Assembly: GCA_027365105.1 (NCBI GenBank)
Contig: DAHXNZ010000004.1
Coordinates: 30,852-94,851, forward strand
DNA length: 64,000 nt
Source: Thermoplasmata archaeon
GTDB taxonomy: Archaea > Thermoplasmatota > Thermoplasmata > Lutacidiplasmatales > UBA184
Reading direction: 5' to 3'
The notes beneath the pieces were generated by a model, which ran no database searches, was not told the origin of the DNA, and was given only the letters and a program-made list of their open reading frames with translations. Position 1 is the stretch's first letter. Each line of letters begins with the position of its first letter. A program made the position numbers and the translations under genes. Below, in pieces: positions 696 through 16,609 of the stretch.

Positions 696-1262
696 ATGAC
701 CGACCTGCCGACCCGCCCCGCGCTGCGCGCCGCGGTGTATGCACGGGTGTCCCGACAGGACGAGGTCGGGATCCTCGAGAACCAAGTGCGTGACCTTCGG
801 GACCTCGCCGCTCGGAACGGCTACGTCGTGACCCGGGAGTACGTAGAGATCGCTTCGGGGGCGGATGACGGGCGAACCCAACTCAACGCCCTTCTCCACG
901 ACGCGGCGCTCCTCCGGGGCCGACCGTGGGACGTGGTTCTCTTCCGCTCCCTGAGCCGAATGACACGGACAGGGACGCTCGGCGCGCTGGATCTGCTACG
1001 ACGGCTCGATTCCTACGGGGTCCAGTGGCGGTTCTTGGAGACTCCCATGCTCGATTCCACCAGCGACACCCCGGCGCTCGTCCGAAACGTGATGCTCACC
1101 CTAATCGCGGAGCTCGACCGGGACTACCGGGAACGCATTTCCAAGGCCACCCGGGCCGCGTTTGAGCGCAAGAAGGCCTTGGCCAAGGGTCGGGGGGAAT
1201 CGGTTGTCTGGGGACGCCGGCGAAAGGCTACCCCCCTGCCGAACGAGGGCGCGACCGCCTAA
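696..1262 (+). CDS. serine recombinase / resolvase-type catalytic domain protein
   Basis: AAVYARVSRQDE..LENQVRDLRDLAARNGY...FRSLSRMTRTG...DRDYRERISKATRAAFERKK is a typical resolvase N-terminal catalytic domain. Confidence 0.85.
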   Translation: MTDLPTRPALRAAVYARVSRQDEVGILENQVRDLRDLAARNGYVVTREYVEIASGADDGRTQLNALLHDAALLRGRPWDVVLFRSLSRMTRTGTLGALDLLRRLDSYGVQWRFLETPMLDSTSDTPALVRNVMLTLIAELDRDYRERISKATRAAFERKKALAKGRGESVVWGRRRKATPLPNEGATA

Positions 1263-1541
1263 TCCCAAAGGGGGCGATTACGGTCCTGTAGGCTCCTCAA
1301 GTCGGGCCCTTTCAGAAAGGTTGGGCAACCCTTGAGCGCGTTGACGCATCCCCTCGGGATCCACGAGGGTCTGTTCCGCACGGTGGAGCGCGTCGCTCGC
1401 TACCGCCGCCTCTTGCTCCGCCCAGCTTGCGAAGGAGTGTAAGGACTCAGCTCCACGGCCCGGCTGAACGCGCGCGCACGCGCGTTCACTTCGGCCGACA
1501 GTTCTAAATCTAGGGAGCCGTTCAGCCATCGCCCGAGAGCG

Positions 1542-3122
1542 ATGGCCCCTCGGGATCTTCGACTGCTACTCGCCCCGGAAGAACCGGACGACTCCATCGT
1601 TGTTTCGCGCAAGAAGGTCGCCGAGTTGCTGCGGCGATTGGAACGGCTCGATCAGACCGAGCACCAGCTCCGAGAAGCGCAGGAGGAAATCCGCCGCCTC
1701 CGCGAGGAGAAGGCCCGATCCAAAGAGAAGCGTGCCTCCCTGAAGGCCGCACTCGACAAACTACGGAGTTCCCTCTCCGTCCTCGGCACCGATGCGAAGA
1801 CCGCGGCCGCTGTGGGAGTGCCCTCGAGCCGCGTCTTCTTCCGGCAGACCCCTCCACCCCCGAAGGACCGGCGGCGAACCGGTGGCCAGCCCGGTCACCC
1901 GGGCGTGACCCGACCTCGGCCCACAGCGAACGCGCCTCCCAAGATGCTCGCGCTGAAGGAGTGCCCGAAGTGTACCCATCCGCTCGGCGAACCCGCCGAC
2001 TCGTGGAGCCGGCCCGTCACCGACCTCCCCGCTCCCGGCCTCGAGATCTTCGACCTCGAGGTGCTCCGCTACAAGTGCCCGGGCTGCGGGGAACGGGTCC
2101 ACGCGCCCATCCCCGAGGCGTACCGGGGCGACTTCGGTCCGCGCCTCAAGGCGTTCGTGGCCGAACTGCGGGTCCTCGGAATGCCGTTCGAGAAGATTGC
2201 GGAGCTGTTGCGGATGCGCTACGACCTCGAGGTGAGCGTGGCCTCCCTGATCGCGATGGAGGACGGGGTGGCCGAATCGCTGGACGAGACCTATCGGAGC
2301 CTCGGTGAGGAGTTGCGGGACGCCGAGCGGACCCCCTCGGCGCAGGGGGATGAGACGGGGATGCCGGTGCACGGGAAGACGGAGTGGCTGTGGGTGGGCA
2401 CGTCGCCGAACCTGACGGTCTACCACATCCTCGCCGGTCGGAGTGGCGAGGCGGCGGCGACGATGTGGGCCGGGTATCGGGGGAAGCTGACCCACGACGG
2501 ACTGGATTCGTACAACTCGCTGACGGAAGCCGAGCACCAGATGGATCTGGTGCATTCGAATCGTTGGCTTCAAAAAGTCGAGGCTGGCCACGGGATCCGG
2601 CCGAGGGGGTTGCTGAAGGAAGAGGGGCCGACCTACGAGCGGGCGGGGCGTCCTCCGAAGGAGTTCCTGCGGTTCGCGGCGGGGGTACGGTCACGGTTGC
2701 GAGCCGAGGTTCGGTGGGTCGAGCGGTATCCGAAGGCCACGCCCGAAGCCCGGGAGCGTCGGTATGCTCGGGCGGTTCGATCGATGGGTCGGTTCCTGGC
2801 GAAGGGGTGGCGGGACGAGGATGCAGCGCGGATCGCGGACGAACTGGGTCAGCGGCTCGAGACGTTGTTCACCTTCGTTCGACGGCCCGGGGTGTCGTGG
2901 AACTCGAACGAGGCGGAACGCGAAGTGAGGGTCGCGGTCGTCCATCGGAAGATCAGCGGAGGTCGGAGGACAGCACGGGGGGCGTGGGTCCTCGAGCGAC
3001 TGTTGACGGTGTGGAGGACCTGTGCCAAGCGCCAGATACAGTTCTGGGGGATTGTGGGTGAGCGACTCGGAGCCCTGCCTCAGGCCGGGGTAGGTCCTCC
3101 GTCAGCCGGGCCAGCGAGCTGA
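1542..3122 (+). mobile_element. IS66-family-like transposase (transposase ORF only; element ends not defined)
   Basis: Coiled-coil N-term, TGGQPGHPG, CPKCTHPL/CPGCGERV zinc-binding region, QGDETGMPVHGKTEWLWVG, C-term SWNSNEAEREVRVAVVHRKISGG. Confidence 0.85.
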
Positions 3123-3496
3123 GTCCTGACGAAGGAGTTCTTGTCAGCCCAGCGAAAGTCGAGCCAGTTCTTGGCCATCCAATGCTCCAAGCGCATGAGC
3201 TTGACCACGCGTGCCCCAGGTGGGATTCGACCTCCGCTCCCCTGTTCGGGGGCGGACTCGGCTCCGACCAACATCCATTCCAACACCGTCACAACTTCGA
3301 GGTGGAGCGACCGAGCATTAGGTCTTCGGTCCCCAGCTTAGCGGGATGATGAGGCGGGCTGGGCCGTTACGGGTTGTGCAACTCTTCGGGGCTCTTCCAT
3401 TAAGGGAACTGAGGAGCAAGGGAGCCACAAGACCCGACAGCACAACAGGTCGGCGCCTCCTGTAGGATTATCTACGGTGTAACCGATGCGTGTCCA

Positions 3497-5540: not shown

Positions 5541-6128
5541 TTGTACGGGTGTCGTGCCTATGTCATGTCGGTAAAGCCCGCGAGCGAACCTGAGCGGACG
5601 ACGATCAAGGACCTCATCGTCTACCTAGCGAAGAGGACGAAGCTCAACGCCACCCGGGTTCAGAAACTGGTCTACCTGATCGAGGCTGAGTACGCGGACA
5701 AGCGCGGTCGGAAGCTCCTTCCGTTCCAGTACTACTACGACCACTTCGGGATGAACTCGGTTCAACTCGAAAATCGTGTTCTCGATATCGCCCGGTCCAA
5801 GGACCCTCCTTTCACTGCCGAATTCAGGAACCGGGACGGCGGGGTTGGGTTCGATCTCAAGCTCAGCGCGGGAGTCCCTGACCCGACCCTCCCTCCTGGC
5901 GTCAAGGCCGCTGTTGATTACGTCCTGAAGGAGTACGCTGGAATTGGCGGGACGATTCCGCTGGCGAGGGCCGCGAAACAGACGCTGCCCTTCTGGGGGA
6001 CCGAGCGAGGCGCGAAGGTCGACTGGAGCATCCTAACGAATCCGAACCTCCGAGGTGACTGTACTGATAAACTGAGCGAAAAGGGGCGGAAGCGACTCCA
6101 AGAGGCTCTGGCCGTCGCCAGCAAGTGA
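5541..6128 (+). CDS. DUF4065/Panacea (SocA-like) domain protein, putative antitoxin
   Basis: TIKDLIVYLAKRTKLNATRVQKLVYLIEAEYADKRGRKLLPFQYYYDHFGMNS matches the Panacea core pattern. True start may be the ATG at 5563. Confidence 0.75.
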   Translation: MYGCRAYVMSVKPASEPERTTIKDLIVYLAKRTKLNATRVQKLVYLIEAEYADKRGRKLLPFQYYYDHFGMNSVQLENRVLDIARSKDPPFTAEFRNRDGGVGFDLKLSAGVPDPTLPPGVKAAVDYVLKEYAGIGGTIPLARAAKQTLPFWGTERGAKVDWSILTNPNLRGDCTDKLSEKGRKRLQEALAVASK

Positions 6129-6149
6129 GCAGGCGGGGACCAAAGCTGA

Positions 6150-6440
6150 ATGCGTGTAATCAGCCTTAGTAATCCTCCGTACACGAAGCGGGATAACGAA
6201 TACTACGAGGACAAGAAGTCAGATTGGGTCGGGCACGACTCAAAGGCAAGGCAGATAGTCGACGGCATGGAGGCGCGGATTCTGAGGACCCCGTCCGCTA
6301 TTGGCAAGGCGTCCGTCGAGCCGAAGGATACCCGCCACGTTCACGTCGGTGCGCACGGGGTCCTATGGTGGAAAATCCACAAGGCGGCCCTCGAGGTCGA
6401 GTTCATCGACATCGGCCACTGGGACGCGTTCTTTGCGTAG
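6150..6440 (+). CDS. small RelE/ParE-like protein, putative toxin
   Basis: 96 aa, 21 nt after the DUF4065 gene; C-term RHVHVGAHGVLWWKIHKAALEVEFIDIGHWDAFF resembles the RelE/ParE pattern (xVRVGxYRVLYxI...VxVxxxGHRxxxY). Confidence 0.5.
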   Translation: MRVISLSNPPYTKRDNEYYEDKKSDWVGHDSKARQIVDGMEARILRTPSAIGKASVEPKDTRHVHVGAHGVLWWKIHKAALEVEFIDIGHWDAFFA

Positions 6441-6699: not shown

Positions 6700-7745
6700 G
6701 AGTGGCGGATGAACGACGCCACGGCTTCGGGATGACCTTGCATCCAGCGTAGTTCCCGTTCCACACCCGCCCGGATCTCCTCACCGGGCTTCGGACACCA
6801 ATTCGCCGACCGTTGGTGCTTCATCACCCTCCGCACCGGTTCATCCGGATCCAGTCCCGGTGCCTACGGCGGGAATCACCGCGTCTCCGGACGCCTCCGG
6901 TGCTCCCACAGGAAGATCTTGACGTCTTTGCGTCGGGGATGGTCCCATTTGCCCCAGATCATTATCCCGCGGCCGGGCATCCCGGTCAGCAGCATCTCCA
7001 TGAACCCCAGAACCCGGGTCCAGTCGATGCTCTCCTCGGGGAGGTCAAAGACGAGCGCCCCATCGGGACTCACTGCCGGGATCAGGTTGAGCTTCGGGCG
7101 ATTCCCCTGCCGATACCGGATCTCCGGGCGACTGCCTGGGGAAGCCTAGGTCCGCCGTACGTTCGGGAACGACGGCGGACAGCTCTTCCCCATGAACAGG
7201 ATCGTGGCGCCCAAACGACGCGCCCGAACCGGGATCCTCGGCCCCTCCTCCTTCGTCCACCCCCGGATGTACGCCTCGTCCCGCTCCATGGCCCGCGGGG
7301 GGGACCTGCGCCGCGAACCCCATGGCCCGCAGCAGCCGCCACGCTCCCGACTCGGTATACTCCATCCCGAATTCGTCCCGGATGATCTCGGTCATCCGTT
7401 TCAGCGTCCAGTGGTCGGCCTCGTAGCCGTGAGTGCGCGCTCCTAGAGGAGGATCTTCTGGAGCGTTTGCCGTTGTTCCACCGTCAGCCGACGAGCGGGT
7501 CCGGGGTGGTTGTGCTCGCGCCACGATCGAGGACCTTCGGCGAGCCGTCACGTGTCCCAGACCCCGTCGGTTCGCCAGGCAACCCCGAGACAACGAGCCA
7601 CCTCGGCCCTGGAGACCCCGCGCCGAAGCCACCCGTAGGCCAGCCTCCGTCGCTCCTCGCGATCCGACACCAAACGGCGGTGACGCCTTCGGGCAGATCG
7701 AAACCTTCCACCGTTCCCCTTCCTGCGCGCCACCACGGGGATTGG
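6700..7745 (-). pseudogene. decayed IS630-family-like transposase
   Basis: Fragments in different minus frames: YGWLRRGVSRAEVARCLGVAWRTDGVW; HGYEADHWTLKRMTEIIRDEFGMEYTESGAWRLLRAMGF; PGRGIMIWGKWDHPRRKDVKIFLWEHRRR; ANWCPKPGEEIRAGVERELRWMQGHPEAVASFIRH. Confidence 0.7.
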
Positions 7746-7980
7746 CTCCGCTAGATGTGAGCATTACCACTCAGAGAGCCGTAACTGAGCCGGATTGTCG
7801 GTGGATGAGGGCTGGCTCTGTCGGGGTTTCGGATGACGGGTCGACGCCGCGACCTCACATCCCGGAGTTCGCCGAGCGAAATCCAGGGGAGTGGCTTGGA
7901 TCCGGTTCCGGACAGGACGGGGCCCGTGCCCATCGAGGCCTGACGAATCGATCTGACTCGAGGCTAAGCCGAAGACGTAC

Positions 7981-8009: not shown

Positions 8010-10946
8010 GTGAAGCACAGCGAGGGAAGGCCTTCGGGATTATCCCGGATCAGCCGGCCCGCCCGGGTGAAGCTGGTCGTCATGGTCGTCGCCCTGGCCG
8101 GCCTCATGGTCGCCTCCCCCCTCCTCGCCGGGTTCGGGAAAACGATCCAAGAAGCGCCCCTCATCTCGACCTCCTTGACAGCATCTCCTCGCATGACCGG
8201 CCCATTCCCATCGTCGGGGGTCGCACCCCATTACCCCGTGAAATTCACCGAGTCTGGCCTTGCCTCCGGGACCAGTTGGTGGGTCACCTTGAACGGCACT
8301 CTCCGCAACTCCACCAGCGCGTCGATCACCTTCAGCGAGCCGAATGGGACCTATCCCTACAGGATTGGCACGACGAGCGGCGGGATCCTGAAATCGCCGA
8401 ACGCGACAGGAACGGTACGGGTGGCAGGAGCTCCGAACACGGTGGTGGTGCCGAGCATCGGGGTAGGCTCCACGCCGTATGCCATTGCCTACGATGCCTC
8501 GAACGGCTACCTCTACGTCGTGAACGAAGTTTCAGACAACGTGACAGTGATCGACGGCACGAACAACTCGGTAGTGGTGCCGAGCATCGGGGTAGGCTCC
8601 CAGCCGTTTGCCATCGCCTACGATGCCTCGAACGGTCACCTCTACGTCCCGAACACCGGTTCGGACAACGTGACAGTGATCGACGGCACGAACAACTCGG
8701 TGGTGGTGCCGAGCATCGGGGTAGGCGACTTCCCGGATGCAATCACCTACGATGCCTCGAACAGCTACCTCTACGTTGCGAACGACTATACAGACAACGT
8801 GACGGTGATCGACGGCGCGAACAACTCCGTGGTGATGCCGAGCATCGGGGTAGGCTCCGTGCCGGAGGCCATCGCCTACGATCCCTCGAACGGCTACCTC
8901 TACGTCGCGAACTCTGGCTCGAACAACGTGACGGTGATCGACGGCGCGAATAACACGGTGGTGGTGCCGAGCATCAGGGTGGGCCACTTGCCGGAGGCCA
9001 TCGCCTACGATCCCTCGAACGGCTACCTCTACGTCGTGAACACCGGTTCGGGCAACGTGACGGTGATCGACGGCGCGAGCAACACGGTGGTGGTGCCGAG
9101 CATCGGGGTGGGCTTCGAGCCGTTTGCCATCGCCTGCGATCCTTTGAACGGCTACCTCTACGTCGCGAACTACGGTTCGGGCAACGTGACGGTGATCGAC
9201 GGCGTGAGCAACTCGGTGGTGGTGCCGAGCATCGGGGGAGACCCCACCCCGTCTGGCATTGCCTACGATCCCTTGAACGGCTACGTCTACGTCGGGGGCG
9301 GCGGTGCGAACAACGTGACAGCGATCAATGGCAATGGCATCGTGTCGACTCTGTGGGGTCCCGCGTATTCGGTGACCTTCACCGAGTCTGGCCTTGCCTC
9401 CGGGACCCGGTGGTCGGTCACCCTGAACGGCACTCTGCACAACTCCACCACCGCCTCGATCACCTTCAGCGAGCCGAATGGGACCTATCCCTACAGGATT
9501 GGCACGACGAGCGGCGGGATCCTGAGGTCGCCGAACGCGACGGGAACGGTACGGGTGGCGGGAGCTCCGAACACGGTGGTGGTGCCGAGCATTGGGGTGG
9601 GCTCTGGGCCGACGGGCATCGCCTACGATGCGATGAACGGCTACCTCTACGCCGCGAACTCTGGCTCGGGCAACGTGACGGTGATCGACGGCGCGAGCAA
9701 CTCGGTAGTGGTGCCGAGCATCGGGGTGGGCTCTGGGCCGACGGGCATCGCCTACGATGCGACGAACGGCTACCTCTACGTCGCGAACTACGCTTCGGGC
9801 AACGTGACGGTGATCAACGGCGCGAGCAACTCGGTGGTGGTGCCGAGCATCGGGGCGGGCTCCTACCCGGCTGCCGTCGCCTACGATCCCACAAACGGCT
9901 ACCTCTACGTTGCGAACTCCGGTTCGGACAACGTGACGGCGATCGACGGAGCGAGCAACACGGTGGCGGTGCCGAGCATCGGCGTGGGCTTCAACCCGAG
10001 GGCCATCGCCTACGATCCCACGAGCGGCTACCTCTACGTCGTGAACACCGGTTCAGGCAACCTGACGGCGATCAGTGCCAACGGCTTCGTGTCCACAGTG
10101 TGGAGTCCCATGTATTCGGTGACTTTCACCGAGTCTGATCTTGCCTACGGGACCCCATGGTCGGTCACCCTGAACGGTACTCTCCGCAACTCCGCCAACG
10201 CCTCGATCGCCTTTACGGAGCTGAACGGGACGTACAACTACAGCGTGAACTCCCCGGGGTGGCAGCCGTCACCGACGACGGGGAGTGTGAAGGTGAGCGG
10301 GGCGAACCCAGCGGCCGTATCGATCCAGTTCACGCAGGTCACCTACACGGTGACGTTCACGGAGAGCGGACTGCCCCTCACGCCCGGTCCGGAGTGGAAC
10401 GTGACGTTGAACGGGGTCACGCACAGTTCATCCACCAGCACGGTCACGTTCACGGAGCCGGACGGGACGTACAACTACAGCGTGAATTCCCCGGGGTGGC
10501 AGCCGTCACCGACGACTGGGAGTGTGGAGGTGAGCGGGGCGAACCCGACGGCCCTCTCGATCCAGTTCATAGAGGTCACCTACACGGTGGCGTTCACGGA
10601 GAGCGGACTGCCCTCCACGACCGGTCCGGAGTGGAACGTGACGTTGAACGGGGTCACGCACAGTTCATCCACCAGCATGATCACGTTCGAGGAGCCGAAC
10701 GGGACGTACCGCTACTCAGTGGAGTCAATCTCCGGCTACACCGTCACCCCAGCGGCAGGGAACCTCACCGTCCATGGCACCCCCGTGAGCCAAGCGCTGG
10801 TGTTCTCAGCGACCAGTGGGGGAGGGTCCTCCTCCGGATTCCTCGGGCTCCCCGGGAACACCGGCTACTACCTCTTGGGTGGAATCGTGGCGGTTGTGTT
10901 GGTCGGAGTCGCCGTCATGCTCATCCTACGGGTGCGACACCGATAG
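8010..10946 (+). CDS. large surface/secreted protein with YVTN-type beta-propeller repeats and C-terminal TM anchor
   Basis: N-term signal-like helix, repeated VVVPSIGVGxxPxAIAYDxxNGYLYVxNxGSxNVTVIDG units, PEGA-like repeats, C-term GYYLLGGIVAVVLVGVAVMLILRVRHR. Confidence 0.92.
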   Translation: MKHSEGRPSGLSRISRPARVKLVVMVVALAGLMVASPLLAGFGKTIQEAPLISTSLTASPRMTGPFPSSGVAPHYPVKFTESGLASGTSWWVTLNGTLRNSTSASITFSEPNGTYPYRIGTTSGGILKSPNATGTVRVAGAPNTVVVPSIGVGSTPYAIAYDASNGYLYVVNEVSDNVTVIDGTNNSVVVPSIGVGSQPFAIAYDASNGHLYVPNTGSDNVTVIDGTNNSVVVPSIGVGDFPDAITYDASNSYLYVANDYTDNVTVIDGANNSVVMPSIGVGSVPEAIAYDPSNGYLYVANSGSNNVTVIDGANNTVVVPSIRVGHLPEAIAYDPSNGYLYVVNTGSGNVTVIDGASNTVVVPSIGVGFEPFAIACDPLNGYLYVANYGSGNVTVIDGVSNSVVVPSIGGDPTPSGIAYDPLNGYVYVGGGGANNVTAINGNGIVSTLWGPAYSVTFTESGLASGTRWSVTLNGTLHNSTTASITFSEPNGTYPYRIGTTSGGILRSPNATGTVRVAGAPNTVVVPSIGVGSGPTGIAYDAMNGYLYAANSGSGNVTVIDGASNSVVVPSIGVGSGPTGIAYDATNGYLYVANYASGNVTVINGASNSVVVPSIGAGSYPAAVAYDPTNGYLYVANSGSDNVTAIDGASNTVAVPSIGVGFNPRAIAYDPTSGYLYVVNTGSGNLTAISANGFVSTVWSPMYSVTFTESDLAYGTPWSVTLNGTLRNSANASIAFTELNGTYNYSVNSPGWQPSPTTGSVKVSGANPAAVSIQFTQVTYTVTFTESGLPLTPGPEWNVTLNGVTHSSSTSTVTFTEPDGTYNYSVNSPGWQPSPTTGSVEVSGANPTALSIQFIEVTYTVAFTESGLPSTTGPEWNVTLNGVTHSSSTSMITFEEPNGTYRYSVESISGYTVTPAAGNLTVHGTPVSQALVFSATSGGGSSSGFLGLPGNTGYYLLGGIVAVVLVGVAVMLILRVRHR
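8436..9338 (+). repeat. 7 tandem 129-bp (43-aa) YVTN-like units
   Basis: GGTGGTGGTGCCGAGCATCGG recurs at 129-bp spacing (8441, 8570, 8699...). Confidence 0.95.
9570..10085 (+). repeat. 4 tandem 129-bp YVTN-like units (second block)
   Basis: Same 43-aa unit four times, after a second copy of the PEGA-like block 1134 bp downstream of the first. Confidence 0.92.

Positions 10947-13834: not shown

Positions 13835-13857
<23 letters not shown>
13312..13857 (+). CDS. DoxX/DoxD-like membrane protein
   Basis: Multi-TM; RIGLGLIWLANL, GGTDVGPMPLYLLVYALLWIGG; ATGA overlap with the cupredoxin gene. Confidence 0.65.

Positions 13858-16609
<2,752 letters not shown>

What the first reader, a model, noticed from the sequence alone, without database searches (positions are those of the whole stretch)
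5541..6440. Putative archaeal Panacea-type toxin-antitoxin pair with a RelE/ParE-like partner
Seen: a DUF4065-like gene (DLIVYLAKRTKLNATRVQKLVYLIEAEY...FQYYYDHFGMNS) is followed after 21 nt by a 96-aa ORF ending RHVHVGAHGVLWWKIHKAALEVEFIDIGHWDAFF, close to the RelE/ParE beta-sheet pattern. Known: Panacea/DUF4065 proteins (SocA, GepA, PanA) act as antitoxins for very diverse toxin folds, often in two-gene operons. Inference: this is a two-gene TA module in an accessory region. The small ORF looks too divergent for a routine family call, so it may be a new toxin subfamily.
Basis: partly seen in the sequence, partly recalled or inferred. Interest (0 to 1): 0.72.

Follow-up and report, generated by a model that had tools for sequence, protein, structure and literature searches.

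The report
Archaeal Panacea–RelE-like toxin–antitoxin gene pair
Two neighbouring genes in a Thermoplasmata archaeon look like a genuine toxin–antitoxin pair, in which a Panacea-domain antitoxin sits next to a RelE/YafQ-type ribonuclease-fold toxin; the same pairing recurs across this archaeal class, so it is a new branch of a known kind of system rather than a new kind.

Summary
In detail: a 187-aa ORF (ATG 5565–6128, +) is followed after 21 nt by a 96-aa ORF (6150–6440, +). The window is from a Thermoplasmata MAG. The window proteins alone score below family thresholds (Panacea E 0.09; YafQ E 0.05), but relatives settle the matter. A 46%-identical orthologue of the first passes the Pfam Panacea cut-off. 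The second is modelled as a RelE/YafQ fold (AlphaFold2 pLDDT 87; best PDB fold matches nearly all RelE/ParE-superfamily toxins). In Thermoplasmata, 16 of 19 informative Panacea loci (short 'orphan' type excluded) have a RelE-like ORF, or a relic of one, directly downstream on the same strand, and distances of the two proteins co-vary (Mantel r 0.85). Related RelE genes in the class are instead paired with small DUF2683/RelB-like antitoxins: antitoxin swapping. Best reading: a type II PanA–RelE/YafQ-like TA module in an IS-rich accessory region, the toxin probably a translation-blocking RNase. Caveat: the usual catalytic histidine (YafQ His87) is Trp91 here, and toxicity is untested. Panacea with RelE/ParE-fold toxins is already reported, so this is a new member of a known kind with a divergent toxin.

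The parts
5565..6128 (+). PanA: Panacea/SocA-like antitoxin, 187 aa (an upstream TTG at 5541 would give 195 aa)
   Evidence: Pfam SocA_Panacea sub-threshold in the window protein (E 0.094) but above the cut-off in the 46%-identical orthologue L010 (26.4 vs 25.7 bits) and strongly in more distant relatives (E down to 8e-14); model matches a phage Panacea protein and a DarTG antitoxin-complex chain
6150..6440 (+). PanT: RelE/YafQ-like toxin, 96 aa, with an N-terminal extension and motif R62-H63-x-H65 ... G89-H90-W91-D92-A93-F94-F95
   Evidence: AlphaFold2 pLDDT 86.8 with beta-alpha-alpha-beta4-alpha order; Foldseek PDB matches nearly all RelE/YafQ/YoeB/HigB/ParE, probability about 1.00; family profile hits RelE in PDB at E 4e-7
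6129..6149 (+). 21-nt intergenic gap; second ORF in frame with the first; operon-like spacing (5-57 nt in relatives)
1439..3130 (+). IS66-type transposase (1542-3122) with 29-nt terminal inverted repeats (1439-1467 / 3102-3130): mobile context, not part of the TA
6876..7770 (-). Broken transposase remains (IS630-like by reading, several frames): mobile context, not part of the TA
   Evidence: weak HTH_Tnp match E 0.02; family assignment from reading the translated fragments

Best explanation
A type II toxin-antitoxin module, antitoxin gene first. The 187-aa stand-alone Panacea protein binds and neutralises the 96-aa RelE/YafQ-fold protein made from the same operon. When the antitoxin is lost or displaced (for instance through loss of the element, stress, or virus infection), the free toxin would block translation, most likely by cleaving mRNA at the ribosome. 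Shown here: both genes, their families, the toxin's predicted fold, conserved order and strand, co-divergence. Inferred: binding, neutralisation, RNase activity, trigger. The step least certain is the chemistry, because the YafQ general-acid histidine is replaced by Trp91 and the nearby His63, His65 or His90 would have to serve (RNase step on its own: about 0.6).
For: Order, strand and spacing conserved in at least 13 genomes with both ORFs readable; 16 of 19 informative loci if interrupted or start-less downstream ORFs are counted. In the window's own genome the toxin profile finds only this one gene. The 13 best toxin-family hits in 400 Thermoplasmata genomes all lie beside a Panacea gene; nine of them built the profile, four (G153, G186, G190, G393) are new. 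PanA and toxin distances correlate, Mantel r 0.85, p 5e-5, n 13. RelE fold model and PDB matches; profile-to-PDB RelE E 4e-7 to 9e-8; relative L012 hits Pfam YafQ_toxin E 1.7e-5, L014 and L019 pass ParE-like_toxin. Panacea in orthologues. A relative's copy lies next to a type II restriction-modification pair, typical company for TA genes.
Against: No experiment. The window's own proteins are below Pfam/NCBIfam cut-offs. Trp91 occupies the catalytic-His column (also in UBA61), and columns of other YafQ-family catalytic residues also differ. The co-divergence includes shared species history. The co-fold used an artificial tether and no interface score or coordinates were available.
Confidence: 0.8

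Rival explanations
1. Same TA module, but the toxin inhibits DNA gyrase (ParE-like) instead of cleaving RNA.
For: Same fold serves RNases and gyrase inhibitors (PMC11980606); this genome does carry a gyrase/topoisomerase IV A subunit (E 6e-153); the canonical catalytic His is Trp91 here; Kurata et al. list ParE among Panacea partners.
Against: Most close relatives keep the H-x3-F/Y motif of RNase members; best family-level hint is YafQ; archaeal members of the superfamily fall almost entirely outside the gyrase-inhibitor clusters (PMC11980606).
Confidence: 0.1
2. The toxin is a decayed or attenuated copy; the pair is a remnant in an IS-rich region and no longer toxic.
For: Trp91 substitution; surrounding transposase remains; other copies in the class carry in-frame stops (G153, G393).
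Against: Both frames intact and no frameshift; Trp at that column is shared with UBA61 at 48% overall identity, which argues for a retained state rather than recent decay.
Confidence: 0.15
3. Type VI-like action: PanA is a proteolytic adaptor that hands the toxin to a protease, as SocA does for SocB.
For: SocA, a founding Panacea protein, works so (PMC8832971).
Against: Results for the tested PanA proteins fit direct binding and neutralisation (PMC8832971, PMC10440598).
Confidence: 0.05
4. Not a TA pair; two unrelated accessory genes next to each other.
For: TA function is inferred from homology and linkage only.
Against: Recurrent adjacency on one strand with short gaps across several families of the class, and co-divergence.
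Confidence: 0.04

Closest known systems
Panacea (DUF4065) PanAT systems (Kurata et al. 2022, PMC8832971; Ernits et al. 2023, PMC10440598)
   Same: Panacea-domain antitoxin in a two-gene locus with a small toxin; under 100 nt between genes; antitoxin first as in 943 of 1,268 pairs of the 2022 survey; often near transposase genes; partner swapping; archaea included; ParE and MqsR-like partners known
   Different: Stand-alone Panacea with a RelE/YafQ-like partner, recurrent in Thermoplasmata; window PanA is below the Pfam cut-off
DinJ-YafQ / RelBE
   Same: Toxin fold, gene order (antitoxin first), C-terminal aromatic residue
   Different: Antitoxin is Panacea and not a small ribbon-helix-helix/RelB-like protein; catalytic His replaced by Trp in the window copy; N-terminal extension
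DUF2683/RelB-like - RelE pairs of the same archaeal class (loci L068-L083)
   Same: Homologous toxin, e.g. RRVHVG versus RHVHVG
   Different: Small (about 77-95 aa) antitoxin of another family; HHD..Y motif intact
SocAB of Caulobacter
   Same: Panacea antitoxin
   Different: SocB is not a RelE-like RNase and SocA acts as a proteolytic adaptor (literature)

Membership tests
Panacea (SocA_Panacea, PF13274) antitoxins | Match to the Pfam model over its cut-off | tested here: inconclusive
   Window protein 14.1 bits vs 25.7; orthologue at 46% identity 26.4 bits, over the cut-off; others up to 53 bits
[quoted passage not shown]
   21 nt in the window, 5-57 nt in relatives, at least 13 genomes with both ORFs readable
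Panacea (SocA_Panacea, PF13274) antitoxins | Neutralises the partner toxin | not testable with these tools
   Needs an expression assay
RelE/ParE (BECR-fold) toxins | Fold | tested here: met
   pLDDT 86.8; PDB matches RelE, YafQ, YoeB, HigB2, ParE, probability about 1.00, TM-scores mostly 0.5-0.8
RelE/ParE (BECR-fold) toxins | Sequence relationship | tested here: met
   Profile of the nine partners hits RelE at 4e-7; relatives L014 and L019 are over Pfam cut-offs. The six close sequences alone give only E 0.2, though all six hits are RelE or HP0892
YafQ family | Over-threshold YafQ model match | tested here: not met
   TIGR00053 14.3 vs 87.25 bits; relative L012 PF15738 25.4 vs 30
YafQ family | Catalytic His87 and aromatic Phe91 (H-x3-F) | tested here: not met
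   Trp91 at the His column, Phe95 kept; His present in G041, G245, G111, G213 (motif from PMC7584586)
mRNA interferases | Ribosome-dependent mRNA cleavage | not testable with these tools
   Needs biochemistry

The most novel reading that the evidence does not exclude
The window's toxin and its close relatives form a RelE-superfamily branch with a remodelled active site (R62-H63-x-H65, Trp in place of the general-acid His) that has changed chemistry or target while keeping a Panacea antitoxin.
Probability: 0.2. Interest if true: 0.5.

Novelty: new member of a known kind. Interest (0 to 1): 0.36.

Why it matters
It shows that Panacea antitoxins have a recurrent RelE/YafQ-like partner in a class of archaea where a 2009 survey found no toxin–antitoxin systems in the order Thermoplasmatales (PMC2701414), and that homologous toxins in the same class use two unrelated antitoxins. 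That makes a compact test case for how a folded, hyperpromiscuous antitoxin takes over a toxin that elsewhere is held by a RelB-like chain. Family models miss these proteins, so such pairs are probably under-annotated in archaeal MAGs.

Tried and rejected
Direct family scans (Pfam, NCBIfam, PHROGs, PADLOC) of the window proteins: nothing over threshold. phmmer of the toxin alone against PDB: only a chance prefoldin hit, E 0.68. Profile of PanA against PDB: nothing. Close relatives in viral contigs, phages and plasmids: none for the window proteins; a more distant Thermoplasmata PanA finds haloarchaeal plasmid Panacea genes followed by 152–192 aa proteins without a Pfam match, and a Nostoc Panacea–PemK/MazF pair, so the RelE partner is not universal. 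Co-folding was approximated by reading the two in-frame TGA codons between the genes as Trp to make one chain of 291 residues: pLDDT 84.7, pTM 0.74, linker disordered; without coordinates or an interface score I draw no conclusion on the interface. A first 35-row alignment for this job misplaced partners and was dropped. Sigma-70 promoter/terminator scan uninformative for an archaeon. Searches returned errors.

Full report
Observation.

Family of the first gene. Pfam SocA_Panacea matches the window protein only weakly (14.1 bits, E 0.094). The 46%-identical orthologue in G248 passes the curated cut-off (26.4 vs 25.7 bits), and more distant members of the same family reach 35–53 bits. Membership therefore rests on transitive homology. 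The model of the fused chain matches a phage protein named SocA-like Panacea (probability 0.94, E 0.18) and an M. tuberculosis DarTG chain (probability 1.00, but TM only 0.31–0.45); the latter is a lead, not a test.

Family of the second gene. The window protein alone has only a YafQ hint at its C-terminus (E 0.048). Its relative in G111 hits YafQ_toxin (E 1.7e-5, 25.4 of the 30 bits needed) and those in G237 and G116 pass the ParE-like_toxin cut-off. A profile of nine partners finds E. coli RelE in the PDB at 4e-7; with 27 sequences RelE reaches 9e-8 and HP0892 2e-6. AlphaFold2 gives pLDDT 86.8 and the order beta-alpha-alpha-beta-beta-beta-beta-alpha; the best 50 PDB fold matches are nearly all RelE, YafQ, YoeB, HigB and ParE toxins (the one exception by name is Cami1, 8phb).

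Linkage. Panacea searches of Thermoplasmata (300 and 400 genomes per class search, and the 106 genomes held for the order) found 52 of 400 genomes with a match. I examined the neighbourhoods of 24 loci. Four are a short (roughly 126–145 aa) Panacea type of one family, f15, without a RelE neighbour. Of the other 20, one (G365) ends at a contig edge; of the remaining 19, 16 have a RelE-like stretch directly downstream on the same strand. In two of those 16 the toxin frame is interrupted (G153, G393), in two it lacks an obvious start (G186, G190), G393 also has a stop within the PanA match, and G186's PanA frame is split; these may be relics. The three without are G279, G260 and G189. The profile was built from nine of the 16, so only seven are independent of profile building. 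Most of the other RelE-family genes inspected in the class have a small upstream antitoxin, DUF2683 by Pfam in one of the two that I scanned. On a toxin tree the Panacea-linked and the other toxins fall on two sides of one branch, with weak support (66/87). In 13 pairs, distances of PanA and toxin correlate (Mantel r 0.85, p 5e-5), which fits stable pairing but also reflects shared species history.

Active site. Using the alignment to HP0892 and the literature on YafQ, HP0892 and HP0894 (PMC7584586), the C-terminal H-x3-F/Y motif falls on window positions 91 and 95. Position 95 is Phe, as in all six close sequences. Position 91 is Trp in the window and in UBA61 but His in G041, G245, G111 and G213 and nearly all others. 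Position 90 is His. R62 and H63 are invariant in the six; in RHH-linked toxins position 63 is Arg. So the fold and part of the active site are kept, the standard general acid is not, and RNase activity of this copy is an inference with that weakness. E. coli RelE is known to work without a histidine at this place (own knowledge), so the change does not exclude an RNase.

Context. GC falls to 0.58–0.60 in the pair against 0.72 for a housekeeping gene such as the aconitase at 13835–16609. An IS66 transposase with 29-nt terminal inverted repeats lies upstream and a broken transposase downstream. In the order, 9 of 106 genomes have a Panacea match. In G248 the pair adjoins an EcoRII-C-type endonuclease and a type II methyltransferase. 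This is the usual setting of TA genes; no trigger can be named.

Comparison. Kurata et al. 2022 (PMC8832971) found Panacea in bacteria, archaea and phages with 88 toxin combinations, including MqsR-like and ParE; Ernits et al. 2023 (PMC10440598) predicted TA pairs in Ca. Thermoplasmota and dissected PanA with MqsR. Supplementary tables could not be read, so this very pairing may already be listed there. The finding is thus a new member of a known kind. What it adds is the recurrence of a RelE/YafQ-like partner in Thermoplasmata and a divergent branch of the toxin.

Noticed in passing
window 1439-3130: Apparently complete IS66-type element: transposase 1542-3122 and 29-nt, 86% complementary terminal inverted repeats.
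   Followed up: partly
window 696-1262: Small serine resolvase (Resolvase N-terminal domain, E 1.4e-20) upstream of the IS66 element.
   Followed up: no
window 6876-7770 (-): Transposase broken across frames, IS630-like by reading.
   Followed up: no
window 8010-10946: 978-aa protein with YVTN/lactonase-type beta-propeller repeats and repeated 'VTFTESGL' modules, C-terminal membrane anchor.
   Followed up: no
L016, L017, L018, L022, L041-L052 (mostly family f15): Short (about 126 aa) Panacea-like genes without a RelE neighbour in the members checked: orphan Panacea proteins that may not be antitoxins.
   Followed up: partly
L092 1956-2995; L093 1938-3077: Haloarchaeal plasmid Panacea genes followed at 3-14 nt by 152- and 192-aa proteins without a Pfam match: candidate unknown Panacea partners.
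   Followed up: partly
L085 7620-9790: EcoRII-C-type endonuclease and type II methyltransferase right after the Panacea-RelE pair of UBA61/G248.
   Followed up: yes
G142 (L026 1990-2331), G275 (L028 1407-1682), G167 (L040 2049-2324): Other Panacea-linked RelE-like proteins that lack the C-terminal H-x3-Y/F motif.
   Followed up: no
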